Source: an alpha proteobacterium BAL199 | GTDB taxonomy: Bacteria > Pseudomonadota > Alphaproteobacteria > Thalassobaculales > Thalassobaculaceae | DNA: 39,358 nt | Direction of reading: 5' to 3' | Assembly: GCA_000171835.1 (NCBI GenBank) | Contig: ABHC01000035.1 | Coordinates: 1-39,358, forward strand | In this document: piece by piece, positions 5,515 to 39,358 of the stretch | How positions within the stretch are numbered: position 1 is the first letter of the stretch | Layout: every line of letters begins with the position of its first letter | Translations under genes and position numbers: made by a program | The notes under the pieces: model-generated | What the model was told of the DNA's origin: nothing | What the model saw: the letters and a program-made list of their open reading frames with translations, nothing else | Database searches by the model: none

Positions 5515-5516
5515 CG

Positions 5517-21171: not shown

Positions 21172-21987
21172 GGTGTTGTCACGTTAACGTGCCTGAGGTT
21201 GCGGGTTCAATGATCCGGGCGTAGGCGGTGTCGATGCAAACAGAGAAAATCAGCTACAAGCGCCACCGCTTTCCGCCTCAGATCATTTCTCATGTTGTCT
21301 GGCTCTACGCCCGGTTCAACTTGAGCCTGCGCGAGGTCGAGGAGCTTATGCTGGAACGTGGTGTGGACGTTTCGTATGAGACGATCCGGCGCTGGACCGT
21401 CAAGTTCGGTCCCCGGATCGCCCACGTTCTGCGGCGACGGCAGCCTCGCCCTGGTGATGTTTGGCATCTGGACGAAGTCGTCGTGAAGATCGCGGGCCGG
21501 TCATACTGGCTGTGGCGCGCCGTCGACCAACACGGTGTCGTTCTTGAGGAAATCTTACAATCGAAGCGAGACAAGCGCGCTGCAAAGCGGCTTTTGATCA
21601 AGCTGATGAAACGTTGGGGCTTCGTGCCCAAAAGGATCATTACGGACAAACTGCGCTCATATGGGGCCGCCAAGCGCGAGGTCGCGCCTGGCCTTGATCA
21701 TTGGTCACACAAGGGGCTCAATAACCGCGCCGAGAACAGCCACTTGCCCTTCCGAAAACGAGAGCGGGTGATGCAAGGCTTCCGATCACCGGGTGGATTA
21801 CAACGCTTCGTGTCTATGCAATCCGCAACCCGCAATCGTTACTCTGTCCCAGCCCGCCGTCGTTCCGCCCTCACCATTCGCTACCATCGGCTCGAAGCGT
21901 TCGAAGCTTGGAAATCCGCGGCACATGCCGCTTGATCAACGACCGGCATGCCAACTTGCTAACTCGACGAGTTAACGTGACAACACC
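21172..21987 (+). mobile_element. IS6-family insertion sequence, copy 1 (816 bp)
   Basis: The element is bounded by perfect 17-bp inverted repeats, GGTGTTGTCACGTTAAC, at 21172-21188 and 21971-21987. It encodes one transposase. The 8 bases on the left (TGGTGAAG) and right (CCGGCGTC) differ, so there is no target duplication. The left neighbour is a broken marC and the right neighbour a gene fragment unrelated to it. This fits replicon fusion, deletion or recombination between copies rather than a simple insertion. Confidence 0.95.
21234..21935 (+). CDS. IS6-family transposase, copy 1
   Basis: This 233-residue DDE transposase has the IS6/IS26-type layout: N-terminal helix-turn-helix (LSLREVEELMLERGVDVSYETIRRW in pieces), first catalytic Asp in VWHLDEVVVKI, second in RIITDKLRSYG, and Glu in NRAENSHLPFRKRERVMQGF. 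ATG 21234 lies 62 bases from the IS tip; a GTG two codons earlier is an alternative. The protein is identical in all complete copies here. Confidence 0.95.
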   Translation: MQTEKISYKRHRFPPQIISHVVWLYARFNLSLREVEELMLERGVDVSYETIRRWTVKFGPRIAHVLRRRQPRPGDVWHLDEVVVKIAGRSYWLWRAVDQHGVVLEEILQSKRDKRAAKRLLIKLMKRWGFVPKRIITDKLRSYGAAKREVAPGLDHWSHKGLNNRAENSHLPFRKRERVMQGFRSPGGLQRFVSMQSATRNRYSVPARRRSALTIRYHRLEAFEAWKSAAHAA

Positions 21988-22511
21988 CCGGCGTCAGTTC
22001 GATGACCAACCACGCGGCGTTCGCCCACGCCGATGCGCCGTTGTTCCTGTTCCACCTGCTCGAGTTCTGCGGCGTGCCGTTCGACATCGACATCGCCGGG
22101 CTGAACGACCGCTGGGCCGATCCGCAGAACATCGACTCCTGGTGCCAGATGGTGGTCAAGCACACCGAGGACTCCATCGACATCCTGACCGAATGTCCGG
22201 AGACCGGGATCTGGCGGATGGAGGCCGATGGTTCGGTGCACTACAACCGGTTCGACTATCACCGCCGTGCGGTCGAGAGCGAAGCGGAAGCCTTCTTCCT
22301 GCGGATCCAGCGTCCGGGCGACTACCGCTACGAGGGCGCCGACCTCGGCATCCTGGTGACCCGTGGCCGGGCCATGGACAACAAGTTCCAGCTCACCGAC
22401 CGCTCAAGGCAATGGATCGATGGCATCCGCTCCCACTTCAAGGGGCGGCCGCTGGCGGCAGCGGCCCCGGTGCCGGCCCAGTTGGAGAACCATCAGTTCA
22501 AGATCCTTTGA
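21988..22511 (+). pseudogene. C-terminal gene fragment, possibly of an ATP-grasp ligase
   Basis: The frame is open from the IS border (PGVSSMTNHAAFAHADAP) to TGA at 22511, about 174 residues. It may be the tail of a larger protein. The opening resembles the end of ATP-grasp domains, where a metal-binding Asn-rich strand is followed by a helix; this match is only suggestive. The rest (FDIDIAGLNDRWADPQNIDS, RPGDYRYEGADLGILVTRG) is not a family I can name. ATG 22002 could act as a start if the fragment were an intact small gene. It precedes the C45 hydrolase gene. Confidence 0.45.
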
Positions 22512-22541
22512 GCGATACCCGCGGATAGCTGGGTTGCGGAT

Positions 22542-22567
22542 ACAGGCGTGGCGGCAGCCACGCCTGT
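22542..22567 (+). terminator. Perfect 11-bp hairpin after the truncated gene
   Basis: ACAGGCGTGGC (22542-22552) pairs fully with GCCACGCCTGT (22557-22567) across the loop GGCA. It starts 30 bases after the TGA at 22511 and ends 36 bases before the C45 start. There is no U-run, so it is terminator-like by stem only, or may act in mRNA stability. Confidence 0.55.
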
Positions 22568-22603
22568 GCTGCATGGTGCCGCGATGATATGGTATCCGGC
22601 GCC

Positions 22604-23578
22604 ATGAACCTGACCTTTACCGCCCTCAACGACCATACCGGCCGCCGCTGGCAGGGCCTGTTCGAGCGCTTGTGGCCGGCGTATCGGAGCTGGTACCTGC
22701 AGGATGGCGTCGAAGCGCGACCAAGCTACTTCGAATGCCGACAGGCCCTGCGCACGCACATGCCAGAACTGGTTCCGGTGTGGGAGCGGCTGGTCGATCT
22801 GGCCGGCGGCGGCGACCTGCCGGCGCGGTTGCTCAGCCTCTATGACCCCCCCGCCTATCTTACCGGTTGCTCACAGGCGGTGTGGTCGGGAGCGGACCCC
22901 CTGCTGGTCCGGAACTACGACTACAGTTCACGCGCCTTCGACGCGGTCGTGCTCCGGTCCAGTTGGACCGACAAGGCGATCATGGGTACCTGCGACTGCC
23001 TGATTGGATTGGTCGACGGCATCAATGAAGCCGGGCTGGCCGTGTCGCTGACCTTCGGCGGACGGCGGGTGGTTGGCCAGGGCTTCGGCGTGCCGATCAT
23101 CCTGCGCTACGTGCTGGAAACCTGCGAAACCGTCGAGCAGGCGGGAAAGGTGCTGGCGCGCCTGCCGACGCACATGGCCTACAACGTCACCGTCCTGGAC
23201 GCCAACCGCAAGTGGCTGACGGTCTACCTGTCGCCGGACCGCCCGCCGGTGATGACCCACGCCGCGGTGGCGACCAATCACCAGGAACGGGTCGAATGGA
23301 TCAGCCACGCGCGCCAGACCGCGACGGTTGAGCGCGAACGCTACCTGCTCACCCGGCTGGCGCTGCATGAAGAATCGGAGACCCGGTTCATCTCCGCGTT
23401 CCTTCGACCGCCTCTGTACTCGCTGGCGTTCGAGCGCGGGTTCGGAACACTGTACACCGCCGCCATGTGGCCGCGCCGGCGCGAGATGGCCTATCGCTGG
23501 CCCTCGGCCGAGTGGCGCCTGAACCTGGATGCGTTCCAGGAAAGCTCGATGGCAGTGACCTATCCAGAGGCCGCCTGA
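22604..23578 (+). CDS. C45-family Ntn-hydrolase / acyltransferase-like protein
   Basis: This 324-residue protein resembles the C45 autoproteolytic family (acyl-CoA:6-APA acyltransferase and predicted choloylglycine hydrolases). The likely nucleophile is Cys89 in YLTGCSQAVW, which would become N-terminal after self-cleavage at Gly-Cys. Next come DPLLVRNYDYSSRAFDAV, MGTCDCLIGLVDGINEAGLA and MAYNVTVLDANRKWLTVYLS, all typical strands of the Ntn core. Substrate is unknown: amide or acyl transfer are both possible. ATG 22589 is an alternative start; neither has a good ribosome site. The gene converges on the DapA-like gene. Confidence 0.8.
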   Translation: MNLTFTALNDHTGRRWQGLFERLWPAYRSWYLQDGVEARPSYFECRQALRTHMPELVPVWERLVDLAGGGDLPARLLSLYDPPAYLTGCSQAVWSGADPLLVRNYDYSSRAFDAVVLRSSWTDKAIMGTCDCLIGLVDGINEAGLAVSLTFGGRRVVGQGFGVPIILRYVLETCETVEQAGKVLARLPTHMAYNVTVLDANRKWLTVYLSPDRPPVMTHAAVATNHQERVEWISHARQTATVERERYLLTRLALHEESETRFISAFLRPPLYSLAFERGFGTLYTAAMWPRRREMAYRWPSAEWRLNLDAFQESSMAVTYPEAA

Positions 23579-23591
23579 CCCCGGTCAGGCG
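23572..23591. terminator. Bidirectional hairpin holding both convergent stop codons
   Basis: CGCCTGACC (23572-23580) and GGTCAGGCG (23583-23591) form a near-perfect stem with a short C-rich loop. The plus-strand TGA of the C45 gene (23576-23578) is in the left arm, and the minus-strand TGA of the DapA-like gene (23585-23587) is in the right arm. It probably terminates both convergent transcripts. Confidence 0.6.
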
Positions 23592-24547
23592 ACCTTGGCG
23601 TACACCGTTCCACCGGTAAGCCCTGCCGCCTCCATCGCGCGACCAATCTTGGCGATCTCCGCCTCCGACAGCTTCATCAGCGGCGGCCGGACATGGGCCG
23701 CCTTCATCCGCCCCAGATGCACCAGCGCCTCTTTCATGCGGTTGTGCATATCGAGGAACGGCGGGTCATAGAACGCGCCGGTGGTCGGGTAGATCCGGTC
23801 CGCGATCGACCGGGCCGCGGCAAGGTCGCCGTTCTGCACCGCGCGGAACAGGGCTACCTGCAGCGCGGCGATGACGCTGCCCGCGCCCGACAGCAAGCCG
23901 TCGCAACCCAGCACCAGCGATGACAGCAACCAGGACGAGTGGGTCGACAGCACCGAGATCCGGCGAGGCAGTGCATGCAGTTCGCGGATCTGGCGTTCGT
24001 GCTGCTTGGTGTCGTTGCACCAATCCTTGATGGCAACGACGGTGTCGATCTCTTGGCAGATCCGGATCAGGGTCTCGACTGGATAGCCAAGCCCGGTAGC
24101 CAGCGGATACTGGAACACGATAATCGGCAGATCGCAGGCCTCGCGGATCGTGCGGAAATGCCCTAGCGCCATCTCCGGGCGCATCGAACCGCCAGACGCA
24201 AAGGTTGCCGATGGGAACACCAGCAGTGCGCTCGCCCCACCACTCTCGGCGCGACGGGCGATGTCGGCGGCGAGGTGCGATCCGTCCGAATACACGCCGT
24301 GGACCACCGGCAGGCGGCCACCGACCTCCTCCATGGTCATCGCCAGCACCCGCTCCTGCTCGGCGATCGTGCAGGTCGCGACCTCGCTGGCATGGGCGTT
24401 CACCGTGACCGCGGTGATGCCCTCGACCGCTGCGACGTCGCGCAGATGAGCGCGGTATCCGGCCTCGTCGATCGACAGGTCGGCGTGGAACGGCAGCAGG
24501 CAGGCGGGGATCACCCCTTTCGGCTGAAACCTCAACGCAGCGGCCAT
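23585..24547 (-). CDS. DapA-like aldolase (DHDPS/NAL superfamily)
   Basis: This 320-residue (beta/alpha)8-barrel protein belongs to the dihydrodipicolinate synthase/N-acetylneuraminate lyase superfamily. The Schiff-base Lys is in VVAIKDWCNDT and the Tyr in IIVFQYPLATGLG. The usual GTTGE-type loop is replaced by TVNAHASEVATC, so it is not a standard DapA and probably acts on another 2-keto acid or aldehyde. ATG 24547 follows GGGAGGAC. It faces the C45 gene and shares a hairpin with it; upstream is an IS630 insertion. Confidence 0.85.
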   Translation of the reverse strand: MAAALRFQPKGVIPACLLPFHADLSIDEAGYRAHLRDVAAVEGITAVTVNAHASEVATCTIAEQERVLAMTMEEVGGRLPVVHGVYSDGSHLAADIARRAESGGASALLVFPSATFASGGSMRPEMALGHFRTIREACDLPIIVFQYPLATGLGYPVETLIRICQEIDTVVAIKDWCNDTKQHERQIRELHALPRRISVLSTHSSWLLSSLVLGCDGLLSGAGSVIAALQVALFRAVQNGDLAAARSIADRIYPTTGAFYDPPFLDMHNRMKEALVHLGRMKAAHVRPPLMKLSEAEIAKIGRAMEAAGLTGGTVYAKVA

Positions 24548-24626
24548 GGTGTCCTCCCAGTGTGGCACTTATTCAGGCCAGCTTATGCCTTCGATGCCCA
24601 GCAATGAAGTGCACGAAACCGCACTA

Positions 24627-25775
24627 GTGGATAAAATCCGACATTAGAATCCCGCTCAGGATTCCCGCGGGTTCGGTGGCGTGCGAGTCTGGGGCATGCG
24701 CACCGGGATCAGCTTCACCGTCAGTACCGCCGATCGCGCCCGCCTGGAGGCGATCGTGGCGGACCGCAACAGCCCGCAAAAGCACGTCTGGCGCTGCCGG
24801 ATCGTGCTGCTCACCGCCGCGGGCCTGGGCACCAACGCGATCATGCGCGAGGCCGGGGTCGCCAAGACGGCGGTCTGGCGCTGGCAGGAGCGCTTCGCCG
24901 CCGAAGGCGTGGACGGGCTGCTGCGGGACAAGACGCGCCCGTCGCGGATCCCGCCGCTGGACCCCTCGGTGGCCGAGCGCGTCGTCGCCCTGACCCTGAC
25001 CGATCCGCCCGGCGAGACGACCCACTGGACCGCCGCAACGATGGCGGCACAGACCGGCATCTCGGTTAGTTCGGTGCAGCGGATCTGGCGTGCTCACGGT
25101 TTGGCCCCGCATCGGATCCGGCAGTTCAAGCTCTCGAACGACCCGGAGTTCGTGACCAAGCTGCGCGACGTGGTCGGGCTCTATGTCGACCCGCCGGCCC
25201 ACGCCATCGTGCTCAGCGTCGACGAGAAGAGCCAGATCCAGGCGCTCGACCGCACCCAGCCCGGCCTGCCGCTGAAGAAGGGCCGCGCCGGCACCATGAC
25301 CCACGACTACAAGCGCCATGGCACCACCACCTTGTTCGCTGCCCTCAACGTGCTCGACGGCACCGTCATCGGCCGCAACATGCAGCGTCACCGCCACCAG
25401 GAGTTCATCCGCTTCCTCAACCACATCGAGGCCCAGGTTCCGGCCGGCAAGGTGATCCACGCCGTCCTCGACAACTACGCCGCCCACAAGCACCCCAAGG
25501 TCCGCGCCTGGCTGCACCGCCATCCCCGCTGGACCTTCCACTTCGTGCCGACCTCATGTTCCTGGCTCAACGCCGTCGAAGGCTTCTTCGCCAGGCTCGC
25601 CAAGCGCCGCCTCAAGCGCGGCGTCTTCCGCTCTGTCGCCGACCTCCAGGCCGCCATCAACCGCTTCCTCGACGAGCACAACGCCTCAGATCCGAAGCCC
25701 TTCAACTGGACAGCCGATCCCGACAAAATCATCGCCGCCGTCAGGCGTGGGCACCAAGTGTTGGATTCTATCCAC
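24627..25775 (+). mobile_element. IS630-family insertion sequence with TA target duplication (1149 bp)
   Basis: The ends are inverted repeats: GTGGATAAAATCCGACA on the left and, read inward from the right, GTGGATAGAATCCAACA (15 of 17 bases equal). TA lies directly outside both ends (24625-24626 and 25776-25777), as IS630/Tc1 elements duplicate TA. The full target is CTAG. The insertion separates the DapA-like gene from the antiporter fragment and falls in the antiporter stop codon. Confidence 0.92.
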
Positions 25776-25778
25776 TAG
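24696..25778 (+). CDS. IS630-family transposase
   Basis: This 360-residue transposase has an N-terminal helix-turn-helix (GLGTNAIMREAGVAKTAVWRW in pieces) and a DDE domain: IVLSVDEKSQIQALDRTQPG, HAVLDNYAAHKHPKV and SWLNAVEGFFARLAKR. All three acidic residues are in place, so it looks functional. GTG 24681 is an alternative start. Its stop TAG (25776-25778) is made from the duplicated target TA plus the first base of flanking DNA, so the coding frame runs to the very end of the element. Confidence 0.93.
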   Translation: MRTGISFTVSTADRARLEAIVADRNSPQKHVWRCRIVLLTAAGLGTNAIMREAGVAKTAVWRWQERFAAEGVDGLLRDKTRPSRIPPLDPSVAERVVALTLTDPPGETTHWTAATMAAQTGISVSSVQRIWRAHGLAPHRIRQFKLSNDPEFVTKLRDVVGLYVDPPAHAIVLSVDEKSQIQALDRTQPGLPLKKGRAGTMTHDYKRHGTTTLFAALNVLDGTVIGRNMQRHRHQEFIRFLNHIEAQVPAGKVIHAVLDNYAAHKHPKVRAWLHRHPRWTFHFVPTSCSWLNAVEGFFARLAKRRLKRGVFRSVADLQAAINRFLDEHNASDPKPFNWTADPDKIIAAVRRGHQVLDSIH

Positions 25779-26702
25779 GTTGCTTCCGGTTTGTCCGAAC
25801 CATCACCGCTCCAGTCGAGTTCCTCGGGAACCGACTTCCGGAAGCCCTCGCCGAGTTGACGGTCGGCGGCGTCGCGGATCGTGCGTTCCAGCGCGGGGTC
25901 GTTCTTCGCCAGTCGCTTGAAGTCGCGCCGGGACAGGATCAGCAACCGGCAGAAGCTGCGGGCGACGATCTCGGTGGACCGCCTGCGGGTCGGGGCGATC
26001 AGCGCCAATTCCCCAAAGAACTGGCCGTTCGACAGCAGAACTTCGTGCTCCAGGCCGGTGACTTCCAGCACCCCCGACGCGATGAAGTACATGGCGTTTC
26101 CACGTTCGCCCACCGCCGCTATCACCTCATCCGGCAATGCCAGACGTCCCCGGAGGCAGCGCTCGATCGCGGCGGACTGGCGCCCGTCCAACGCCGCGAA
26201 CAGCGGAACCTTACCCAGCAGGTCGGTCGGGGTCAGCCCAAGGTCAACCGGCGGCGGTGTCGCCAGCCCGCGCATGCGATGATCAAGTTCGCGATCCAGC
26301 GAGCGGTGCAGGTCGGTACCGATGATACCCTCGTCGAACAGCCGTCGGTACTGCGTACGCTCGCGCCGCACACCGGCCCGCATCAGCAGGATCGACTCCA
26401 TCGCGCGGGTGTAGCCTGGATACTGCAGCCGGATGACGTCGATCTCGTCGTGCAGCATCTCCAGGCGCTTACCGACAAACTCGACCACGTTGCGTGTGGC
26501 GTCATCGCCGATCATCGGGCCGATCACCTCGCGGGCGAACGTCGCCAGATCGCGCACCACCGTCTCGGATTCCAGCAGCATGGTCATCCGACGCTCCAGC
26601 ATGACCCGCAGCAGCCGGTCGGCGAGCCGCAACCGGTGCAGCCAGACGGCAACCCGGAACAGCATCGGGAAGCGCAGATTGGCCTCGACCATGTCTTCAT
26701 AG
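25775..26702 (-). pseudogene. cNMP-binding Na+/H+ antiporter, C-terminal part only
   Basis: About 308 native residues remain. A long helical region (VRDLATFAREVIGPMIGDD, EIDVIRLQYPGYTRAMESIL) is followed by a cyclic-nucleotide-binding domain: LLGKVPLFAALD, then GNAMYFIASGVLEV, GQFFGELALIAPTRRRSTEI and CRLLILSRRDFKRL. This is the cytoplasmic tail of Na+/H+ antiporters with a cNMP domain. The membrane transport domain is missing, cut by IS6 copy 2. An IS-derived GTG or the internal ATG (MVEANLRF) could still start translation of the soluble tail. Confidence 0.83.
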
Positions 26703-27518
26703 GGTGTTGTCACGTTAACTCGTCGAGTTAGCAAGTTGGCATGCCGGTCGTTGATCAAGCGGCATGTGCCGCGGATTTCCAAGCTTCGAACGCTTCGAGC
26801 CGATGGTAGCGAATGGTGAGGGCGGAACGACGGCGGGCTGGGACAGAGTAACGATTGCGGGTTGCGGATTGCATAGACACGAAGCGTTGTAATCCACCCG
26901 GTGATCGGAAGCCTTGCATCACCCGCTCTCGTTTTCGGAAGGGCAAGTGGCTGTTCTCGGCGCGGTTATTGAGCCCCTTGTGTGACCAATGATCAAGGCC
27001 AGGCGCGACCTCGCGCTTGGCGGCCCCATATGAGCGCAGTTTGTCCGTAATGATCCTTTTGGGCACGAAGCCCCAACGTTTCATCAGCTTGATCAAAAGC
27101 CGCTTTGCAGCGCGCTTGTCTCGCTTCGATTGTAAGATTTCCTCAAGAACGACACCGTGTTGGTCGACGGCGCGCCACAGCCAGTATGACCGGCCCGCGA
27201 TCTTCACGACGACTTCGTCCAGATGCCAAACATCACCAGGGCGAGGCTGCCGTCGCCGCAGAACGTGGGCGATCCGGGGACCGAACTTGACGGTCCAGCG
27301 CCGGATCGTCTCATACGAAACGTCCACACCACGTTCCAGCATAAGCTCCTCGACCTCGCGCAGGCTCAAGTTGAACCGGGCGTAGAGCCAGACAACATGA
27401 GAAATGATCTGAGGCGGAAAGCGGTGGCGCTTGTAGCTGATTTTCTCTGTTTGCATCGACACCGCCTACGCCCGGATCATTGAACCCGCAACCTCAGGCA
27501 CGTTAACGTGACAACACC
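26703..27518 (-). mobile_element. IS6-family insertion sequence, copy 2 (816 bp, inverted)
   Basis: It is the same element as copy 1 in the opposite direction, with the same 17-bp terminal repeats at 26703-26719 and 27502-27518. Left flank CTTCATAG and right flank CACCATAC do not match, so there is no target duplication. It joins two broken genes, the antiporter tail and a PAS protein lacking its C-terminus, which were never one gene. Confidence 0.95.
26755..27456 (-). CDS. IS6-family transposase, copy 2
   Basis: Identical in protein sequence to copy 1, with all DDE residues (HLDE, ITDK, AENSH) intact. It reads toward the antiporter fragment. Confidence 0.95.
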   Translation of the reverse strand: MQTEKISYKRHRFPPQIISHVVWLYARFNLSLREVEELMLERGVDVSYETIRRWTVKFGPRIAHVLRRRQPRPGDVWHLDEVVVKIAGRSYWLWRAVDQHGVVLEEILQSKRDKRAAKRLLIKLMKRWGFVPKRIITDKLRSYGAAKREVAPGLDHWSHKGLNNRAENSHLPFRKRERVMQGFRSPGGLQRFVSMQSATRNRYSVPARRRSALTIRYHRLEAFEAWKSAAHAA

Positions 27519-27879
27519 CACCATACCGATATGTCGGAACCCCGGTCGTGGCGGTTTCGATCCGGTTGATGCAGCCGTAAGTCTGGTGAAAGTTCTCGAA
27601 AACCTCATCGAGATACGAGCCGGTGAAATCGTTGCCGAACGCCTCGACCATCGCCGTTCCCATCAGGTGGATCTTGAACCGAAATGGATCACGCTCGACG
27701 TCGGTCAGGACGAGATGCCTCAGCACCTTGGGAATATCCAGCGGATCGAAATCCTGTCGTCCTGGAAGATGTTTTCCGGGGTGGATCTTTATCCAGTAGC
27801 GGACAAGCTCACACAAAGCGTGATCTTGCGCGGATGCCACGATGTCATGCGCCCGCGCCAGGCCGGGGTTCTCCACCAT
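27519..27879 (-). pseudogene. PAS_5-type PAS protein, C-terminus removed by IS6 copy 2
   Basis: About 120 native residues remain. They show the same family layout as the intact relatives at 20.1 and 30.3 kb: LCELVRYWIKIHPGKHLPGR, FDPLDIPKVLRHLVLTDVE and FRFKIHLMGTAMVEAFGNDF, followed by TGSYLDEVF. The frame runs into the IS and ends after adding CCHVNVPEVAGSMIRA from its left end. The last PAS strands are missing, so the product is probably not functional. Confidence 0.75.
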
Positions 27880-28087
27880 TCAGTTCCCACTCCGAGTCGG
27901 CCTGCCCCGCTGGCTCCACAGAAGCGTCGCTACAACCACTTCCGACCATATCCGGTACTCGCCGGCAGCACCGCAAGCCTCTCGACACGCCCGCTAGGCG
28001 CCCCACATGGTTCAAGGAACAACACGACGCGTCCGTCTGGGGTATCCTTTCCGGCAGTTGCCGCATTAAGCGGCCCGGAGGTACCTC
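27880..28087. other. Divergent intergenic region, PAS fragment / msrA
   Basis: These 208 bases separate the PAS fragment (minus) and msrA (plus). They must hold the msrA promoter. I see no convincing gene, riboswitch or repeat. Confidence 0.3.
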
Positions 28088-28723
28088 ATGTTCCGATGGC
28101 TGTTTGGAGGCAAGCCCATGACCCCGTCATCCTTTCCCGATCCCGCGATCGATTTGCCGGCGGGCGCGTACGGTGAACGCACCGTCGTATTGGGAGGCGG
28201 CTGCTTCTGGTGCACCGAGGCGGTCTTCAAGGAACTGAGCGGTGTGCTGTCGGTCCGGCCGGGCTACGCCGGCGGCACGGCCGAGACCGCCGACTACCGG
28301 ACGGTCTGCAGCGGCACCACCGGGCACGCCGAAGTGATCGGGGTGACCTACGACCCGAGCAGGATCAGCCTCGGCGCCCTGCTGAAGGTGTTCTTCTCGG
28401 TCGCACACGACCCGACCCAGCTCAACCGGCAGGGCAACGATCGCGGGTCGCAGTACCGTTCAGCGGTGTTCTACGCCGATGCCGACGAGAAACGGGTGGC
28501 CGAGGCCTACATCGCCCAAATCGACGCCGCAGGGGTGTTCGATGCGCCGATCGTCACCACGGTCGAGCCGCTGGACGCGTTCTACGAGGCCGAGGAGTAT
28601 CACTTCGACTACGCTGCCCGGAATCCATCGCAGCCGTACATCACCCACGTCTCCGCCCCGAAGGTGGAAAAGCTGCGCCGCGCCTATCCGGAGCGGCTGA
28701 AGTCCGAGAAAGCCGGCGCCTGA
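28088..28723 (+). CDS. msrA: Peptide methionine (S)-S-oxide reductase MsrA
   Basis: MsrA repairs the S form of methionine sulfoxide. The 211-residue protein has the active-site [18 protein letters not shown], then [44 protein letters not shown] split over the middle, and [15 protein letters not shown]. Two starts have good ribosome sites: ATG 28088 (GGAGG at 28077-28081) and ATG 28118 (GGAGG at 28106-28110). The first is chosen because it keeps the short leader MFRWLFGGK often seen in bacterial MsrA. msrB follows 18 bases downstream. Confidence 0.95.
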
Positions 28724-28741
28724 GCGCCAGGGAGATCCGCC

Positions 28742-29239: not shown

Positions 29240-29334
29240 AACCTGCAGGCGACCGATGGGCCAGGCCGGAACCGCGGTCTGGCCACCGCGTTGAAGGAGG
29301 AGCCAATACTCCCCCGAACGCGTGAAGGACGTCC

Positions 29335-30123: not shown

Positions 30124-30251
30124 CACCCAGTTGCCTGAGCTGCATACTCCCGTACTACTACCATCGCGAGCCTAATTCGTCGTTAAGTTCGCCTTAATGG
30201 GATTGCGTTATGACGGTCCCGATTCGGGCACTGTGACGTAAAGGTTTCGCG

Positions 30252-30863: not shown

Positions 30864-30902
30864 CCCGGACCGGCGACGGCCCATCATCGGGAAGGATGAC
30901 CG

Positions 30903-31349: not shown

Positions 31350-31460
31350 TTTCGGTGTCGCACACGGCAAGCTATGTGCCGACGTCGGATCGCGCGGCTG
31401 TGCCTATGGGGGGCGGGGCCCGCCCTCCGTACCGTCCGTCACTGAATGAGGGTTGCGATC

Positions 31461-32591
31461 ATGATGAAAATCACCCGTCGTACCGTACTCCGGGGCTCGG
31501 CAGCCGTGGCCGCCTCGGCACTCGCGGCACCGGTGGTCCTGCGCGCTCACGACGCGCTGGCCTCGTCCGGCACAGTCAACGTGTTCGCCTGGGGCGACTA
31601 TGTTCAGCCGAACATGGTTGAAAAGTTCCAAAAGGACTCCGGCATTACCGTCAACCTGTCGACCTTCGGCTCGAACGACGAAGCCGTGCAGAAGCTGCGA
31701 GCCGCCGGCGGCAAGGGCTTCGACGTGATCTTCCCGTCGGTCACCAACGGTCCGCAATACTACCCGGACGACCTGCTGCAGCCGCTCGACGAGAGCAAGG
31801 TGAAGATGGACCGGATCATCCCATCGATGGTCCGTGATTCCGTGCAGTTGGGCGCCACCTACCGCGGCAAGCGCATGCTGCTGCCGTTCGACTGGGGCAC
31901 CGAGGCGATGACCTTCGACTCCAGCGTCTTCAAACTCAGCGATGACGACATCTCGTTCGGCACCATGTGGACCCCGGAAGCCAAAGGCAAGGCGGCGTTC
32001 CGCCAGAAGTCGGTGCTGGTGGGCACCGCCATCTACCTGGACGCCACCGGCGAGGTGAAGTCGAACCGTGGCCTCGACCTGTACAAGTCCGAAGAGGACA
32101 TGCGCCGGGTGTTCGACGCGGTGACCAAGTACATTGTCGCCCGCAAGGGCAACATCGCCGCGTTCTGGAACAACGCCACCGAGGCGACCAACGCCTTCAA
32201 ACAGGCCGGAGCGGCCGTTGGCCAGACCTGGGATACCACCGGCCTCCTGCTGAACCGCGAGGATGCCAAGTGGAAGTACCGGATGCCGAAAGAAGGCGGC
32301 ATCACCTGGATGGACTCCATCGGCATTCCGACCGGTGCGGCCAACCTTGAGCAGGCCTACGCCTTCATCAACGGCATGTTCGACCCGATGATGGCCGGCA
32401 TGTTCTCCAAGAACACCGGCTACAACTCGGCCGCCGTCGGCGCCGCGGCGCACGCCGGTGACGAGTACGCCAAGCAGTTCAACGAGGTCTACAACGAGAA
32501 GACCTTGGCGAACCTCTGGTGGTGGCAGGCCGACACGCCCTGGTTCGCGACCGTGCGCCAGGAATACGTCGACCGGATCACCAACGCCTGA
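31461..32591 (+). CDS. PotD-like polyamine ABC transporter solute-binding protein, Tat-exported
   Basis: This 376-residue protein has a twin-arginine signal (ITRRTVLRGSAAVAASALAA) and a mature N-terminus, GTVNVFAWGDYVQPNMVEKF, typical of spermidine/putrescine-binding proteins. FDVIFPSVTNG and LPFDWGTEAMTFD support this. ATG 31461 is chosen because GAGGG lies 8 bases upstream. No permease or ATPase follows: the stop is 3 bases before IS6 copy 3, so the rest of the operon was probably cut off. It may be a transport orphan. Confidence 0.88.
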   Translation: MMKITRRTVLRGSAAVAASALAAPVVLRAHDALASSGTVNVFAWGDYVQPNMVEKFQKDSGITVNLSTFGSNDEAVQKLRAAGGKGFDVIFPSVTNGPQYYPDDLLQPLDESKVKMDRIIPSMVRDSVQLGATYRGKRMLLPFDWGTEAMTFDSSVFKLSDDDISFGTMWTPEAKGKAAFRQKSVLVGTAIYLDATGEVKSNRGLDLYKSEEDMRRVFDAVTKYIVARKGNIAAFWNNATEATNAFKQAGAAVGQTWDTTGLLLNREDAKWKYRMPKEGGITWMDSIGIPTGAANLEQAYAFINGMFDPMMAGMFSKNTGYNSAAVGAAAHAGDEYAKQFNEVYNEKTLANLWWWQADTPWFATVRQEYVDRITNA

Positions 32592-32594
32592 CGG

Positions 32595-33410
32595 GGTGTT
32601 GTCACGTTAACGTGCCTGAGGTTGCGGGTTCAATGATCCGGGCGTAGGCGGTGTCGATGCAAACAGAGAAAATCAGCTACAAGCGCCACCGCTTTCCGCC
32701 TCAGATCATTTCTCATGTTGTCTGGCTCTACGCCCGGTTCAACTTGAGCCTGCGCGAGGTCGAGGAGCTTATGCTGGAACGTGGTGTGGACGTTTCGTAT
32801 GAGACGATCCGGCGCTGGACCGTCAAGTTCGGTCCCCGGATCGCCCACGTTCTGCGGCGACGGCAGCCTCGCCCTGGTGATGTTTGGCATCTGGACGAAG
32901 TCGTCGTGAAGATCGCGGGCCGGTCATACTGGCTGTGGCGCGCCGTCGACCAACACGGTGTCGTTCTTGAGGAAATCTTACAATCGAAGCGAGACAAGCG
33001 CGCTGCAAAGCGGCTTTTGATCAAGCTGATGAAACGTTGGGGCTTCGTGCCCAAAAGGATCATTACGGACAAACTGCGCTCATATGGGGCCGCCAAGCGC
33101 GAGGTCGCGCCTGGCCTTGATCATTGGTCACACAAGGGGCTCAATAACCGCGCCGAGAACAGCCACTTGCCCTTCCGAAAACGAGAGCGGGTGATGCAAG
33201 GCTTCCGATCACCGGGTGGATTACAACGCTTCGTGTCTATGCAATCCGCAACCCGCAATCGTTACTCTGTCCCAGCCCGCCGTCGTTCCGCCCTCACCAT
33301 TCGCTACCATCGGCTCGAAGCGTTCGAAGCTTGGAAATCCGCGGCACATGCCGCTTGATCAACGACCGGCATGCCAACTTGCTAACTCGACGAGTTAACG
33401 TGACAACACC
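32595..33410 (+). mobile_element. IS6-family insertion sequence, copy 3 (816 bp)
   Basis: It has the same ends and length as copy 1, in the same direction. Flanks CCTGACGG (left) and CTCCGGAT (right) differ, so there is no target duplication. It joins the complete potD-like gene to a TRAP permease gene lacking its 5' part. Confidence 0.95.
32657..33358 (+). CDS. IS6-family transposase, copy 3
   Basis: Identical in protein sequence to copies 1 and 2, with an intact DDE triad. Confidence 0.95.
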   Translation: MQTEKISYKRHRFPPQIISHVVWLYARFNLSLREVEELMLERGVDVSYETIRRWTVKFGPRIAHVLRRRQPRPGDVWHLDEVVVKIAGRSYWLWRAVDQHGVVLEEILQSKRDKRAAKRLLIKLMKRWGFVPKRIITDKLRSYGAAKREVAPGLDHWSHKGLNNRAENSHLPFRKRERVMQGFRSPGGLQRFVSMQSATRNRYSVPARRRSALTIRYHRLEAFEAWKSAAHAA

Positions 33411-34389
33411 CTCCGGATACACCCCGCTGTACGCCGGTACTGTTGGGTTGGCGTTGACGGTGCTGCTGATTCTGGGCGGGTCGGTCGCGCTCGGGTTCTC
33501 GTCGACGGCGCTGCGCACGGTGTTTTGGTTGTGCCTGGGCATCGTGGCCAGCGCGTTCCTGCAATGGGGCATGCTGGTTATCGTCACGGCGGTGGCGTTG
33601 CTGATCCTGTGGAACGCACTCTCCAAGGGCGGGCGCGCCACCCTGGCACTGTGCCGTGACAGCTTGGCAGACGGCGCCAAGACCGCCCTGCCGGTCGGCG
33701 TCGCCTGCGCGATCGTCGGCATCATCATCGGCACCATGACCCTGACCGGTGCCGCCAACACCTTCGGCCAGTACATCGTCTCAGTCGGCGACAAGAGCCT
33801 ATTCCTGTCGCTGCTGCTGACGATGGTGACCTGCCTGGTGCTCGGCATGGGCATCCCGACAATCCCGAACTACATCATCACCTCGTCCATCGCCGGCCCC
33901 GCGCTGCTGAAGCTCGGCGTGCCGCTGATGGTGTCGCACATGTTCGTGTTCTACTTCGGCATCCTGGCCGACCTGACGCCGCCGGTGGCGCTGGCCTGTT
34001 TCGCGGCGGCGCCGATCGCGCGGGCCAGCGGTCTGAAGATCTCGTTCGAAGCCATAAAGGTAGCGACCGCCGGGTTCGTGATCCCGTTCATGGCGGTCTA
34101 CACGCCGGCCCTGATGCTGCAGGACGGTGGGCCGCTGTCGGAAGCGTTCGGCTACCCGGTCGCAGTCGCCTACATCGTCTTCAAGACCACGCTCGCCATC
34201 GGGCTGTGGGGAGCAGCGGTGATCGGGTTCCTGCGGATCCGCATGCTGGTCTGGGAGCGAGTGGTGGCGACCCTGGCGGCGTTCTGCCTGATCGCGGCGC
34301 TGCCGATCACCGACGAGATCGGCTTCGCGCTCGCCGCGCTGTCGATCGCCGGACACTGGTGGCGGAGCCGGCCGGTGGCAGTCGCCTAA
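33411..34389 (+). pseudogene. TRAP transporter fused permease, C-terminal part only
   Basis: About 325 native residues remain, with many hydrophobic helices. The stretch LGMGIPTIPNYIITSSIAGP and the following MFVFYFGILADLTPPVALAC are hallmarks of 4TM/12TM fused TRAP permeases (DctM-like large subunit). These are secondary transporters for carboxylates or related solutes, working with a periplasmic binding protein. The N-terminal half is missing, cut by IS6 copy 3. The IS tip reads in frame into the fragment. Its TAA overlaps the convergent stop of the next gene. Confidence 0.87.
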
Positions 34390-35366
34390 GCCGGCGGATG
34401 GTCGGCGAGGTACTGCCGCACGATCGTGTCGAAGTCAGGGTCCGGCTGTAGAGGCGGGTTCAGGTTCACGGTCGTGACGAACTCGGTCGGCCAGCCGTCG
34501 ACCACCGCCTGAATGGCCGCAACCGGATCGATGCCCACCCGGCCGGCCGCTTCCGGTCTGGCAACCCGGCCGAGTGCCGCGACCATATCGTCGACGGACA
34601 CCGTCAGGCCGGGTTGGTTGACCGCCCTGCTGCTGCCGAACACCGACGCGGGGACGTCGTGCAGCCGAACCAGGTTCCGCGCAATCTGCTGGACCGAAGC
34701 GACGGGAAACCGGGTGGCGCCCGATACCGGCGACACCGCCGGTCGACCGGACAGCGGTTCACGGACTAGCGACGCGAGCCGGTCCGACACCGCCTGGGTC
34801 GGCCCCCCCGGCCGGATCAGCACGATCGGCAGGCGCAGGGCGCGCCCGTCCACGAAGCCGTGGCGGCTGTAGTCGTTGATCAGCAACTCGGTGACCGACT
34901 TGGCGGTCCCGTAGGAAGTCTGCGGGGTCTGCACCTGATTGTCGGAGACCCGGTCCGGTAGCTCGCCTCCGAACACGGCGATTGAGCTGGCATAGACGAA
35001 ACGAGTCCCGGACTTCAGCCGACGACAGGCTTCCAGCAGCCGCAACGGCAGGTGCAGGTTGACCGCCCAGCCCGTGTCCAGATCGGTCTCGGCATCGATC
35101 GTCAGGGTGGCAGCCAAGTGAAACAGGCTGTCGACACCATCGCCCATCACCCGGGCCAGGAAGCTATCGTCGCGCAGATCGCCGGTGAGCGCCGCAACCT
35201 CCACTTGTTCGCTACACAGACCGTCGAACGGGGCACGGTCGACCAGGATCAGTTCGGTAACCGCAGATGGCGTGCCGCCGGGACCCGCGAGCGTCCCGCG
35301 CTCCAGCAGGACCCTGGTGAGGTGGCGGCCGATGAATCCTCCCGCCCCAGTAACCAGCACACGCAT
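34386..35366 (-). CDS. NAD-dependent epimerase/dehydratase, DenD-like (D-erythronate dehydrogenase family)
   Basis: This 326-residue extended SDR protein has the NAD motif VLVTGAGGFIGRHLTRVLLE, VYASSIAVFGGELPD and the catalytic YxxxK in YGTAKSVTELLINDYSRHG, followed by LRLPIVLIRPG. This combination is typical of DenD, which oxidises D-erythronate in four-carbon sugar-acid breakdown. No denD partner genes are next to it, so the substrate is a guess. ATG 35366 follows GGAGGTTGCG. The stop overlaps the TRAP fragment stop on the opposite strand (34386-34389). Confidence 0.78.
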   Translation of the reverse strand: MRVLVTGAGGFIGRHLTRVLLERGTLAGPGGTPSAVTELILVDRAPFDGLCSEQVEVAALTGDLRDDSFLARVMGDGVDSLFHLAATLTIDAETDLDTGWAVNLHLPLRLLEACRRLKSGTRFVYASSIAVFGGELPDRVSDNQVQTPQTSYGTAKSVTELLINDYSRHGFVDGRALRLPIVLIRPGGPTQAVSDRLASLVREPLSGRPAVSPVSGATRFPVASVQQIARNLVRLHDVPASVFGSSRAVNQPGLTVSVDDMVAALGRVARPEAAGRVGIDPVAAIQAVVDGWPTEFVTTVNLNPPLQPDPDFDTIVRQYLADHPPA

Positions 35367-35491
35367 CGCAACCTCCGGAATCCTCGCTCCGGCTTCTGGC
35401 ACACGCGCCCGAGCGCTTGCAACCGGCGGCTGCGCGTCGATTGCACATATGCGATACCGTTCCGCATCGACACTTGCCGACGGACCGAGCC

Positions 35492-37120
35492 ATGACCGAC
35501 CAGCCCAGCATCGGTGCCGATACCGTGCCGTCGCCGAACGATTGCGTTCTGCGCTGCCTGCTGGACCGGCAGGCCCGCGCCAACCCGGAACGGACGTTCG
35601 TACGGTTCTGGCGCGGCGAAGCCTGGAGCTACGCGCAAACGCTCGACCGCGTCCGGCGCCGCGCGACGGCGCTCAGGGACGCCGGCGTCCGGCAGGGCAA
35701 CCACGTTCTGTGCTGGATGGGCAACGGCCCCGACCTGCTGGTCACCTGGTTCGCCATCAACTACCTCGGCGCGGTCTACGTGCCGATCAACACCGCCGCC
35801 AAGGGCCGCCCCCTGGCCCACATCCTGAACAACGCCGACGCCCGGCTGATGATCGCGCACTCGGCACTGGTCGAACGGTTGGCCGATGTGGAGCGAGGCG
35901 CCCTACAAGCTGTGCTGATGACAGGGCAGATCGCCGCCCCCGCCCCAGCAATCGACGGCCTGACGATCGGCCGGATGTCGGATCCGGCCGAGGTCCGCGA
36001 CGACGCGCTGCTGCTGGAACAACCGATCGAGCCGTGGGACACCCAGGCAATCATGTACACTTCCGGAACCACCGGGAACGCCAAGGGCGTGCTGTTCTCC
36101 TATGTCCAGCACTACACCATGGGGCCGGAGGCGATGGAGGCGATCGGCGCCGAGGACTGTTGCCTGATCGCGGGGCCGATCTTCCACTGCGGCAGCACGC
36201 TGTACGTCTACGCCATGCTGGCCAAGGGCGGGACCATGGCGGTGATCCCGGAGTTCCGAACGGCCGATTTCTGGCCGGCGGTACGCGAGACTGGCAGCAC
36301 GGTGGTCCTGCTGCTCGGCGTGATGGCCAGCTTCCTGCTGAAGGCACCCGAAAGCGACACGGACCGGGCGCACACGCTGCGGAAGGTCTACATCGTGCCG
36401 TTCGGTGAGGACGCCCAGGCGTTCCGGGACCGCTTCAGCATCGATCTGTACACCGTCTACAACATGACCGAGATTTCCAGCCCGCTGATCGCCGGTCCGG
36501 GGATCAGCGAGGCGGGACTGGCTGGAACGCCACGCGCACCGTTCGAACTGCGCGTCGTCGATGCCAACGACATGGCAGTTCCGGTGGGCACGGTCGGCGA
36601 ACTGGTGGTCCGCTCACACCGGCCGTGGGCGCTGTTCAGCGGATACTACAAGAATCCGGACGCGACCGTGGCGGCGACCCGGAACGGCTGGTTCCACACC
36701 GGCGATGCCTTCCGGATCGACGAGTCCGGCCGGTTCTTCTTCGTCGACCGCCTGAAGGACGTGATCCGTCGGCGCGGCGAGAACATCTCGTCGTTCGAAC
36801 TTGAGGCTGAGATCACCGCCCACCCGAAGATCAAGGAAGCGGTGGCCGTTGCGGTGCCGAGCGCCGTCAGCGAGGATGAAGTTCTGGCGGTGGTCACCCC
36901 ACTGGACGGACAAACGCTGGATCCGGCCGAGTTGATCGAGTTCCTGGCCGGGCGCATCGCCCACTACATGGTCCCCCGCTACATCCGGATCGTCCCGGAG
37001 CTACCGAAGACCGCGAGCGGCAAGCTGCAGAAGCACGTGCTGCGCTCCGACGGTGTGACGGCGGACACCTGGGACCGGGACGCTGCCGGCATTCGGATGA
37101 AGCGCGAAGCCTTGAGCTGA
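35492..37120 (+). CDS. AMP-forming acyl-CoA ligase (CaiC/fatty-acid ligase-like)
   Basis: This 542-residue ANL-superfamily enzyme activates a carboxylic acid with ATP and joins it to CoA. It has the P-loop YTSGTTGNAKGVLFSY, the A5 motif YNMTEISSP, the A7 motif WFHTGDAFRID and the catalytic Lys near the C-terminus in LPKTASGKLQK. The sequence looks most like crotonobetaine/carnitine-CoA ligase and related enzymes, but the acid cannot be read from sequence. It stands divergent to the DenD-like gene and may be the first gene of a run with the next two. Confidence 0.88.
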   Translation: MTDQPSIGADTVPSPNDCVLRCLLDRQARANPERTFVRFWRGEAWSYAQTLDRVRRRATALRDAGVRQGNHVLCWMGNGPDLLVTWFAINYLGAVYVPINTAAKGRPLAHILNNADARLMIAHSALVERLADVERGALQAVLMTGQIAAPAPAIDGLTIGRMSDPAEVRDDALLLEQPIEPWDTQAIMYTSGTTGNAKGVLFSYVQHYTMGPEAMEAIGAEDCCLIAGPIFHCGSTLYVYAMLAKGGTMAVIPEFRTADFWPAVRETGSTVVLLLGVMASFLLKAPESDTDRAHTLRKVYIVPFGEDAQAFRDRFSIDLYTVYNMTEISSPLIAGPGISEAGLAGTPRAPFELRVVDANDMAVPVGTVGELVVRSHRPWALFSGYYKNPDATVAATRNGWFHTGDAFRIDESGRFFFVDRLKDVIRRRGENISSFELEAEITAHPKIKEAVAVAVPSAVSEDEVLAVVTPLDGQTLDPAELIEFLAGRIAHYMVPRYIRIVPELPKTASGKLQKHVLRSDGVTADTWDRDAAGIRMKREALS

Positions 37121-37167
37121 ACCGGATGTTAAGGTCCGACGAGACCCGGACTATGGAAGCAGATTGA

Positions 37168-37893
37168 ATGAGCGCGCTCTTCAAGGAACTCGACTACCGC
37201 GAAACACCGATCGGCGCGCTGAGCCTGCGGCGGCGGCGCGAACTCTCGCTCGGAGTCGACGTTTTCGAGATCAAGCTGGGTGACGAATTCCTCATGTCCA
37301 GCCTGTTCACCGCATCGGAAATCGAGCTGGCCAAGCTGGGCTTGGCGGAGCTGTCGGAAGCCGGACTCGAGGTCGTGGTCGGTGGCCTCGGCCTTGGCTA
37401 CACCGCGCAAGCCGTGCTTGAGCACGCCCCGGTCGGCGCCCTGCTGGTGGTCGACGCGCTCGAAGCGGTCATCGACTGGCACCGCGACGGGCTGCTGCCG
37501 CTCGGGGCCGAACTGACCGCCGACCCGCGGTGCCGCTTCGTGCACGGCGATTTCTTCGCGCTGGCCACCTCCGGTGACGGGTTCGATCCCGACGCACCAA
37601 GCCGCCGGTTCGATGCCATCCTGGTCGACATCGACCACTCCCCGGAATTCCTGCTCGACGCCCGGAACGCTGCCTTCTACCAGCCCGAAGGCCTGCGCAA
37701 GCTGGCGGCCCATCTGAAGCCTGGAGGGGTCTTCGGACTGTGGTCGAACGACCGACCCGACGACACCTTCACCGCGCGGCTCGCTGCGATCTTTGCCGAG
37801 GCGCGGGCCGAGCCGGTGACGTTTCACAACCCGCTGCAGAACCGGGAGTTCACGCAGACTGTCTATCTTGCGCGAACGCCGCGCGGCGGATGA
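37168..37893 (+). CDS. Spermidine synthase-like methyltransferase-fold protein
   Basis: This 241-residue protein has a Rossmann-like core, LEVVVGGLGLGYTAQAVLEH, then LLVVDALEAVIDWHRDGLLP and FDAILVDIDHSPEFLL, the pattern of polyamine aminopropyltransferases. The N-terminal beta domain of true spermidine synthases is short or altered, so aminopropyl transfer is not certain. Its stop overlaps the start of the next gene (ATGA), so the two are coupled. No polyamine genes adjoin it. Confidence 0.72.
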   Translation: MSALFKELDYRETPIGALSLRRRRELSLGVDVFEIKLGDEFLMSSLFTASEIELAKLGLAELSEAGLEVVVGGLGLGYTAQAVLEHAPVGALLVVDALEAVIDWHRDGLLPLGAELTADPRCRFVHGDFFALATSGDGFDPDAPSRRFDAILVDIDHSPEFLLDARNAAFYQPEGLRKLAAHLKPGGVFGLWSNDRPDDTFTARLAAIFAEARAEPVTFHNPLQNREFTQTVYLARTPRGG

Positions 37894-38558
37894 CGACCGT
37901 CGGCTCCAACAGAGTTACCACGCCGACACACTGCCCGGTCTGCCGATCAACCGGGCCGGCTCCCTTCCAGACCGTCTCCGGATGCGACTACTGGCGATGC
38001 ACGGCCTGCGAAGCGACATTCCTCGATCCATGCCACTGGCCAGTTCGGGCGGACGAGCACGCCCACTATCGCAATCACGAGAACGACCCTGACGATCCGC
38101 GTTACCGGAAATTCCTGTCGGCACTGGTTGATCCGCTGCTGGCCCGGCTCGGACCCGGCTTGAGCGGCCTCGACTACGGCTGCGGGTCGGGGTCGGCGGC
38201 GGCGGCGATGCTGCGCGAGGCCGGCCACGAGGTAGCGCTGTACGACCCCTGCTTTCACCCGAACCGAGCGACACTCGACCAGTCCTACGACTTCATCACC
38301 TGCACTGAGGTGGCGGAGCACTTCCACCATCCAGCCGACGAGTTCGACCGGTTCGATCGCATGCTTCGACCCGGCGGCTGGTTGGCGATAATGACCTGCT
38401 TCCAGACCGACGACGGCCAGTTCGAACGATGGCACTATCGCCGGGACCCGACCCATGTCGTGTTCTACCGCGAGGCGACTCTGCAGACGGTGGCCTCCCA
38501 GCACAGCTGGAGTTGCGACATTCCGATCAAGGATGTCGCCCTGATGCGGAAGCCGTGA
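37890..38558 (+). CDS. Class I SAM methyltransferase with N-terminal zinc-ribbon
   Basis: This 222-residue protein starts with a Cys4 zinc-ribbon-like part, THCPVCRS...YWRCTACEATF. A methyltransferase domain follows: LSGLDYGCGSGSAAAAMLRE is the SAM loop, YDFITCTEVAEHF the Asp/Glu strand and MLRPGGWLAIMT the later strand. The combination is common in Methyltransf_23-type proteins. Substrate unknown. It overlaps the spermidine synthase-like gene by 4 nt. Confidence 0.82.
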   Translation: MTTVGSNRVTTPTHCPVCRSTGPAPFQTVSGCDYWRCTACEATFLDPCHWPVRADEHAHYRNHENDPDDPRYRKFLSALVDPLLARLGPGLSGLDYGCGSGSAAAAMLREAGHEVALYDPCFHPNRATLDQSYDFITCTEVAEHFHHPADEFDRFDRMLRPGGWLAIMTCFQTDDGQFERWHYRRDPTHVVFYREATLQTVASQHSWSCDIPIKDVALMRKP

Positions 38559-38695
38559 AAGAGCTTCCGGAGGGCAGGAACACATGATCACAATAGTTTG
38601 TGCGCCGTGCCGCAGAAGAATCTGCAAAGCCGGTCAGTAAATGTTAATCATGTTCCGATAGTCTGGTTCTACAGAACGGTAGGATCCGCACGCCC
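38559..38695. promoter_or_regulatory. Intergenic region upstream of the GH114-like gene
   Basis: These 137 bases are richer in A+T than their flanks and probably hold a promoter. GTTCT (38666-38670), AC, AGAAC (38673-38677) is a short perfect inverted repeat about 20 bases before the ATG, a possible operator. No binding protein can be assigned. Confidence 0.3.
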
Positions 38696-38987
38696 ATGAT
38701 CACTCGACGCAGCTTCCTGAACACCTCCTTGGCAACCGCGGCGCTGTCGACGGCCCGTACGGTGCCGGCAACGGCTCAAGCGGCCGCCTCTCTCAAGTGG
38801 GCGGTCTACTACTCCAATGACCTGCCGGCGAGCGCGTTCGAAGACTACGATCTTCTGATCTTCGACCATGAGGCTCATCCGGACCTGACGCCGCTGAAGG
38901 ACGCCCGCAAGCAGGTGTTCGGCTACATCAGCCTCGGTGAGGTCGCGCAAGACCGTCCCTACTACGCAGACATCAAGGCGCTTGGCG
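38696..38987 (+). pseudogene. GH114/PelA-N-like exported protein, cut by IS6 copy 4
   Basis: About 97 native residues remain. A twin-arginine signal (ITRRSFLNTSLATAALS) is followed by LKWAVYYSNDLPASAFEDYD, LLIFDHEAHPDL and KQVFGYISLGEVAQDRPYY. The last stretch is the first half of a GH114-like TIM barrel, the family of endo-alpha-1,4-polygalactosaminidases. Most of the barrel is missing. The frame runs into the IS and ends after CCHVNVPEVAGSMIRA, as in the PAS fragment at 27.5 kb. Confidence 0.72.
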
Positions 38988-39358
38988 GGTGTTGTCACGT
39001 TAACGTGCCTGAGGTTGCGGGTTCAATGATCCGGGCGTAGGCGGTGTCGATGCAAACAGAGAAAATCAGCTACAAGCGCCACCGCTTTCCGCCTCAGATC
39101 ATTTCTCATGTTGTCTGGCTCTACGCCCGGTTCAACTTGAGCCTGCGCGAGGTCGAGGAGCTTATGCTGGAACGTGGTGTGGACGTTTCGTATGAGACGA
39201 TCCGGCGCTGGACCGTCAAGTTCGGTCCCCGGATCGCCCACGTTCTGCGGCGACGGCAGCCTCGCCCTGGTGATGTTTGGCATCTGGACGAAGTCGTCGT
39301 GAAGATCGCGGGCCGGTCATACTGGCTGTGGCGCGCCGTCGACCAACACGGTGTCGTT
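38988..39358 (+). mobile_element. IS6-family insertion sequence, copy 4 (left part, window end)
   Basis: The left 371 bases of the same 816-bp element are present, starting with GGTGTTGTCACGTTAAC. Left flank is GCTTGGCG. The right end and its flank are outside the window, so a target duplication cannot be tested. Confidence 0.95.
39050..39358 (+). CDS. IS6-family transposase, copy 4 (partial at window end)
   Basis: The first 103 residues match the other copies exactly and include the first catalytic Asp (VWHLDEVVVKI). It is incomplete only because the window stops here. Confidence 0.93.
   Translation, partial: MQTEKISYKRHRFPPQIISHVVWLYARFNLSLREVEELMLERGVDVSYETIRRWTVKFGPRIAHVLRRRQPRPGDVWHLDEVVVKIAGRSYWLWRAVDQHGVV

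What the first reader, a model, noticed from the sequence alone, without database searches (positions are those of the whole stretch)
21172..39358. Four identical IS6 copies, none of the three complete ones with a target duplication
The 8-base flanks of copies 1-3 are all different from each other, and no left flank matches any right flank in the window in either orientation. IS6-family elements normally leave 8-bp duplications, so these are products of later rearrangement (deletion, inversion, cointegrate resolution by recombination), or the contig was joined wrongly across identical repeats. Each segment between copies has its own broken genes at its ends, which is what repeated IS6-mediated reshuffling would give.
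Basis: partly seen in the sequence, partly recalled or inferred. Interest (0 to 1): 0.75.

Follow-up and report, generated by a model that had tools for sequence, protein, structure and literature searches.

The report
Genome shuffled by a jumping gene
A marine bacterium carries some fifty copies of one small jumping gene, and the short repeats that jumps leave behind are in many cases found split between different copies, as expected if the element has been copying itself by flipping and deleting pieces of its host's chromosome.

Summary
The element is an 816-bp IS6-family IS. The 6.10-Mb draft genome shows 49 left and 46 right ends, all exact. Of 45 elements with both ends, 0 have an 8-bp duplication of their own. 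In 15 cases the duplication is split: the left 8-mer of one copy equals the right 8-mer of another, against about 0.12 expected; no match exceeds 8 bp. Window copy 3 is one: its left flank pairs with a copy on contig C60, and in relatives the two flanking regions adjoin. A four-copy chain on C61 shows an inversion bounded by inverted copies, and a mapping predicted beforehand was confirmed. One site is exact to the base in a relative. In three cases unpaired flanks border 0.5-2 kb of the relatives missing at that place. This is the expected signature of IS6 intramolecular replicative transposition, at chromosome scale. Misassembly could mimic the split pairs but does not explain the 34 left and 31 right unpaired flanks. 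Reads were not available. The mechanism is known; the extent is unusual.

The parts
21172..21987 (+). IS copy 1 (K08), complete, 816 bp; transposase ORF 21228-21935
   Evidence: NF033587 IS6 transposase 211.7 bits, cutoff 125
26703..27518 (-). IS copy 2 (K09), complete; transposase ORF 26755-27462
32595..33410 (+). IS copy 3 (K10), complete; left 8-mer CCTGACGG = right 8-mer of copy K29 at C60:44137-44952
38988..39358 (+). IS copy 4 (K11), first 371 bp, cut by the contig end
32587..32594 (+). half of the split 8-bp target duplication (CCTGACGG); the other half adjoins K29 on C60
   Evidence: adjacency of both flanking regions in relatives
20799..21170 (-). MarC-family gene, C-terminal part, cut by copy 1
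25775..26701 (-). cyclic-nucleotide-binding-domain protein, N-terminal end apparently cut by copy 2
27519..27879 (-). PAS_5/MopJ-like gene, C-terminal part cut off by copy 2
31446..32591 (+). complete solute-binding-protein gene; in relatives followed directly by the region now right of K29 on C60
33412..34389 (+). TRAP transporter fused permease, C-terminal part; its edge at the IS lies at G001:C2:589709
38696..38986 (+). GH114-like gene, N-terminal part, cut by copy 4 (Pfam match below its cutoff)

Best explanation
An IS6-family element, not found in matching form in the two same-genus genomes searched, multiplied within this chromosome mainly by intramolecular replicative (copy-in) transposition. 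In each event both ends of one copy attack a target on the same molecule with an 8-bp stagger. In one orientation the DNA between is inverted and a second copy appears, so each copy carries one old flank and one of the two target repeats. In the other orientation the DNA between is lost as a circle and the copy is left with an unpaired flank. The missing duplications are therefore split between copies or lost with deleted DNA. Shown: the split pairs, their adjacency in relatives at the sites examined, one inverted segment between inverted copies, and intervals missing beside unpaired flanks. Inferred: the order of events, loss as circles, and that the assembly joins are real.
For: 15 exact 8-bp left/right matches between different copies out of 2254 comparisons; nulls from shifted flanks average 0.13 and 0.12, maximum 2; overlap lengths 5:4, 6:1, 7:2, 8:15, none longer. 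Same-contig pairs: 4, all in opposite orientation, p 0.0017 against random pairing of ends. K10.L/K29.R: in L110 the first ends at 11144 and the second starts at 11153; in L112 and L140 they lie within about 85 bp. K16.L ends at G002:C10:84483 and K15.R starts at 84476, an exact 8-bp overlap at 90-94% identity. K38-K39: segment C61:199028-201241 inverted against G001:C9:25182-27390, likewise in G002. Prediction written, issued in the same turn as and before its answer was seen: K33.L maps to G001:C9 below 25182 and K33.R to C1 above 356169; found at 24593-25071 and from 356241. K25.L/K45.R: their outer parts end and start 139 bp apart in G002:C10. Deletions: K26.L/K21.R border a 1.9-kb interval in both relatives that has no match in this genome. 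Simulation with 2 deletions per inversion gives 16.1 links and 19.6/6.6/2.5/0.8 open chains of 1/2/3/4 copies; one search shows 21 unlinked copies with both ends (25 with partial entries), 6, 2 and 1, plus one closed loop. Control: window 1-19400, without this IS, is largely collinear with G001:C9 and G002:C4.
Against: No reads, so no join is verified. Only 6 of the 15 links were looked at in relatives, chosen by which regions had been fetched: K15/K16 base-exact; K10/K29, K33/K40 and K33/K38 to within about 110 bases; K38/K39 only to a 300-bp G001 interval in which about 1.3 kb of our flank has no counterpart; K25/K45 with about 3 kb of our sequence between the matching parts that G002 lacks there. 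The simulation was fitted, not predicted, and gives no closed loop at these ratios, whereas K30 with K48/K49 forms one. In other orientation classes two unexplained 8-mer matches occurred (K16/K42, K32/K28). A synteny break at window 10.5-12.9 kb has no IS copy. The searches for missing DNA had no positive control (one search says so), and the 0.5-kb interval was not searched for.
Confidence: 0.8

Rival explanations
1. Misassembly: ordinary insertions, each with its own duplication, whose right flanks were swapped by the assembler across identical 816-bp repeats.
For: Produces the same split pairs. The genome is a 69-contig draft and at least two contig ends lie in the IS (C35 end, C61 start). 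Flipping the 372-bp C46 segment, or swapping K30 with K48/K49, would give copies with their own duplications.
Against: It predicts a partner for nearly every left flank; 34 of 49 left and 31 of 46 right have none (two of the 34 left flanks, K35 and K48, and one right flank, K46, lie inside another IS copy). Same-contig pairs are all in opposite orientation and more frequent than random. It does not explain the intervals missing beside unpaired flanks. In 11 records of complete plasmids, 0 copies had a duplication of their own, though several share one site.
Confidence: 0.12
2. Homologous recombination, or IS6 targeted conservative exchange, between existing copies with duplications swapped their flanks.
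For: Gives split pairs without new target cuts. The K30 with K48/K49 closed loop is just what it predicts. Targeted exchange is described for IS26 in the review passages seen (PMC7986276).
Against: Exchange alone preserves both halves, so all chains should close; only one does. Reaching 15 links by loss alone would need on the order of 140 original insertions (my estimate, 46 squared over 15) and many deletions between copies, while the three missing intervals seen are 0.5-2 kb.
Confidence: 0.2
3. For the unpaired flanks: the IS was captured into double-strand breaks during rearrangement, without target duplication, as proposed by Ngan et al. 2024.
For: Also gives copies without duplications beside deletions (PMC11708052; abstract and passages).
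Against: The 15 exact 8-bp split duplications show normal staggered cutting by this element; adjacent deletion explains the rest without a new mechanism. The two cannot be told apart at the unpaired flanks with these data.
Confidence: 0.08

Closest known systems
IS6 family (IS26 and relatives), intramolecular replicative transposition (PMC7986276, passages seen)
   Same: IS6 transposase, 816 bp, GG tips, 8-bp target repeats, inversion with one old and one target flank per copy, adjacent deletion with unpaired flanks.
   Different: Seen here across a marine bacterial genome with about fifty copies and none with its own duplication; cases in the passages seen concern mostly plasmids and resistance regions.
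IS26-mediated inversions in SGI1 of Proteus mirabilis (PMC6769106, passages seen)
   Same: Inverted region flanked by 8-bp inverted repeats attributed to IS26; other IS26 copies there without duplications.
   Different: One genomic island with few copies; here 15 split pairs and chains of up to four copies.
IS26 local activity in Klebsiella pneumoniae (PMC5001619, passages seen)
   Same: Local transposition with a balance of inversion and deletion outcomes; [quoted passage not shown]
   Different: Events found in reads of one culture; here fixed events read from an assembly.
IS150 movements with adjacent deletion and no duplication in the LTEE (PMC11708052, abstract and passages seen)
   Same: IS movement with deletion leaves no duplication.
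   Different: IS3 family; the passages seen do not mention split duplications.

Membership tests
IS6 insertion sequence family | IS6-type transposase | tested here: met
   NF033587 211.7 bits, cutoff 125; PF13610 113.1 bits, cutoff 27
IS6 insertion sequence family | Length about 789-880 bp, inverted terminal repeats with GG tips | tested here: met
   816 bp; perfect 17-bp inverted repeats starting GG; range and GG tips from PMC7986276 passages
IS6 insertion sequence family | 8-bp direct target repeats around a copy (generally made on insertion) | tested here: not met
   0 of 45 copies in this genome, 0 of 11 plasmid relatives. The 8-bp repeat itself is present in split form in 15 cases, so the cut is the family's; what is missing is the two halves around one copy. 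Family status rests on the transposase and ends
IS6 insertion sequence family | DDE triad | tested here: inconclusive
   Candidate residues D82, D140, E169 read off the sequence (motif positions); not aligned to a characterised transposase
IS6 insertion sequence family | Cointegrate formation | not testable with these tools
   Needs an experiment
Intramolecular replicative inversion | Segment inverted against relatives, bounded by inverted copies, each with one half of one 8-bp target | tested here: met
   K38/K39 on C61; the target lies in a 300-bp G001 interval where about 1.3 kb of our flank does not align
Intramolecular replicative inversion | Both target halves adjacent, overlapping 8 bp, in a relative without the IS | tested here: met
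   K15/K16 exact at G002:C10:84476-84483. K10/K29, K33/K38, K33/K40 adjacent to within about 110 bases, not base-exact. 9 of 15 links not examined
Intramolecular replicative deletion | Unpaired flank, neighbouring interval present in relatives and absent here | tested here: inconclusive
   K26.L/K21.R 1.9 kb, no match here; K44.L/K07.R 2.0 kb in G001, only 65-73% matches here; K39.L/K20.R about 0.5 kb, not searched for. The two flanks of each case now sit on different copies, and the searches lack a positive control

The most novel reading that the evidence does not exclude
This IS6 lineage multiplies almost only within one molecule, so it can hardly gain a copy without inverting or deleting chromosome: the whole recent expansion is written as a readable chain of split 8-bp tags from which the order of inversions could be reconstructed.
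Probability: 0.35. Interest if true: 0.6.

Novelty: new member of a known kind. Interest (0 to 1): 0.45.

Why it matters
It shows that missing target duplications need not mean decay or breakage: searching the whole genome for the other half of each 8-mer recovers many of the events. The genome is a natural test bed for inversion versus deletion outcomes of an IS6 element at chromosome scale, outside resistance plasmids, and bears on the current discussion of IS copies without duplications.

Tried and rejected
Rfam (gathering threshold) and tRNA scans of the window found nothing. A PDB sequence search with the transposase found nothing at E 0.001. A deletion reading for copy 1 (K08.L with K05.R, G001:C9:308783 and 307923) was not adopted: the last 560 bp or so of K08.L do not align to G001, and in G002 the spacing fits no deletion. 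The other halves of the MarC, PAS_5, cNMP and GH114-like genes were not traced (one search compared only the halves present). Literature searches. No listing showed a genome-wide network of split duplications of an IS6 element, but for most papers only titles and abstract starts were seen; passages were seen of PMC7986276, PMC11708052, PMC12016528, PMC5001619 and PMC6769106. He et al. 2015 on IS26 (recalled) is not held.

Full report
Element. The window has four copies of an 816-bp IS6-family element with perfect 17-bp terminal inverted repeats starting GG. The transposase matches NF033587 at 211.7 bits against a cutoff of 125. The window is contig C35 of a 6,102,701-base draft in 69 contigs; the fourth copy is cut by the contig end. 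A DNA search listed 40 full-length matches, all shown as 100%, and one 36-base piece, but scored only 40 of 108 candidates. End patterns with up to 2 mismatches allowed gave 49 left and 46 right ends, all with 0 mismatches. These make 50 entries, of which 45 have both ends: 42 of 816 bp and 3 interrupted ones of 2100-2397 bp.

Relatives. The two same-genus genomes returned are G001 and G002. G001 has no match to the IS and G002 only a 116-base piece at 73%, with 12 candidates scored in each. In the plasmid collection the ten listed DNA matches are full-length or nearly so at 90-91%, in marine Rhodobacterales such as Sulfitobacter; two unlisted records fall in the 95-99% band. That suggests, but does not show, acquisition from such a pool.

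Duplications are split. 0 of 45 copies have their own 8-bp duplication; the closest two have 3 mismatches. But 15 of 2254 left-right comparisons match exactly between different copies. Two nulls from the same flanks, shifted, average 0.13 and 0.12 with a maximum of 2, and overlap lengths stop at exactly 8. Chains: K39-K38-K33-K40 (all on C61), K04-K12-K22, K18-K43-K34, six single pairs including K29-K10 (window copy 3), and one closed loop, K30 with the tandem K48/K49. Other orientation classes gave three matches: K35/K48, which share a junction inside an IS, and two without explanation (K16/K42, K32/K28).

Comparison with relatives. Left of window copy 3 lies a complete solute-binding-protein gene. 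In L110 its flank ends at 11144 and the flank right of K29 on C60 begins at 11153. The C60 region follows the same gene in 18 of the 48 relatives' loci visible in the listing, which was cut off. K16.L ends at G002:C10:84483 and K15.R starts at 84476: an exact 8-bp overlap. On C61 the segment between K38 and K39 is inverted against both relatives. From the links I predicted that K33's flanks would map below G001:C9:25182 and above C1:356169; they mapped to 24593-25071 and from 356241 (prediction, issued in the same turn, before the answer was seen). K25.L and K45.R do not align next to the IS, but their outer parts lie 139 bp apart in G002:C10; about 3 kb of our sequence between them is not there in G002. 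In all, 6 of 15 links were looked at, chosen by which regions had been fetched; one is base-exact.

Unpaired flanks. K26.L and K21.R border a 1.9-kb interval in both relatives that gave no match here. K44.L and K07.R border 2.0 kb in G001, of which only 65-73% matches occur here. K39.L and K20.R border about 0.5 kb in both relatives; this interval was not searched for. Right of window copy 3, the TRAP permease part begins at G001:C2:589709; the 9.7 kb before it in G001 have only 67-83% scattered matches here. These searches had no positive control.

Window context. Window 1-19400, without this IS, is largely collinear with G001:C9 and, from 1563 on, with G002:C4, apart from 10.5-12.9 kb and a G001-only stretch. 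Beyond copy 1 the segments map to G001 C1, C11 and C2, plus C8 for the AMP-binding gene, so the place in G001 changes from segment to segment, although parts of them have no match.

Model. The review passages state that intramolecular replicative transposition gives deletion or inversion, with flanks distributed as seen here. A toy simulation growing one founder to 46 copies gives 23 links at one deletion per inversion and 16 at two. It was fitted, ignores lethality and recombination, and yields no closed loop at those ratios; the K30 loop probably needs exchange between copies or a founder with its own duplication.

Independent hint. Of 11 plasmid loci fetched from the 12 listed protein hits (10 intact at both ends, one diverged at its right end), none has its own duplication. 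Five (L182, L185-L188) share the left 8-mer GAAGAAGA beside a DsbD-domain gene but have five different right flanks, as repeated one-sided deletion or rearrangement would give. These were best hits, not a random or independent sample.

Verdict. The finding is real and mostly explained by a known mechanism; the scale is what is unusual. Misassembly stays open until reads are checked.

Noticed in passing
G000 C61:160441-161982 and C69:153994-155535 (L092, L101): Two tandem structures: a 726-bp left part of the IS followed directly by a complete IS, with the same internal junction at both places; possibly transposition of an IS into an IS, with the tandem then spread as a unit.
   Followed up: partly
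G000 C69:69587-70438 (L100): A complete IS abutted by the first 36 bp of another copy in inverted orientation.
   Followed up: no
window 24624-25778: A second, unrelated IS (IS630-like by its DDE_3 and HTH matches; the name is recalled), 92% identical to G002:C12:56422-57575.
   Followed up: no
window 34386-37120: Epimerase and AMP-binding genes lie between the TRAP permease part and two methyltransferases that are neighbours in G001:C2; the AMP-binding gene maps to G001:C8. No copy of this IS lies at the junction.
   Followed up: no
window 10500-12900: About 2.4 kb not collinear with the relatives, parts mapping elsewhere in them, with no copy of this IS.
   Followed up: no
window 17738-20102: Two tandem ORFs with direct repeats 75-88% alike; M20-type amidohydrolases by recall, not scanned.
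   Followed up: no
plasmid loci L182, L185, L186, L187, L188: Same left 8-mer beside a DsbD-domain gene and five different right flanks around a 91% identical IS in Sulfitobacter and Tritonibacter plasmids.
   Followed up: partly
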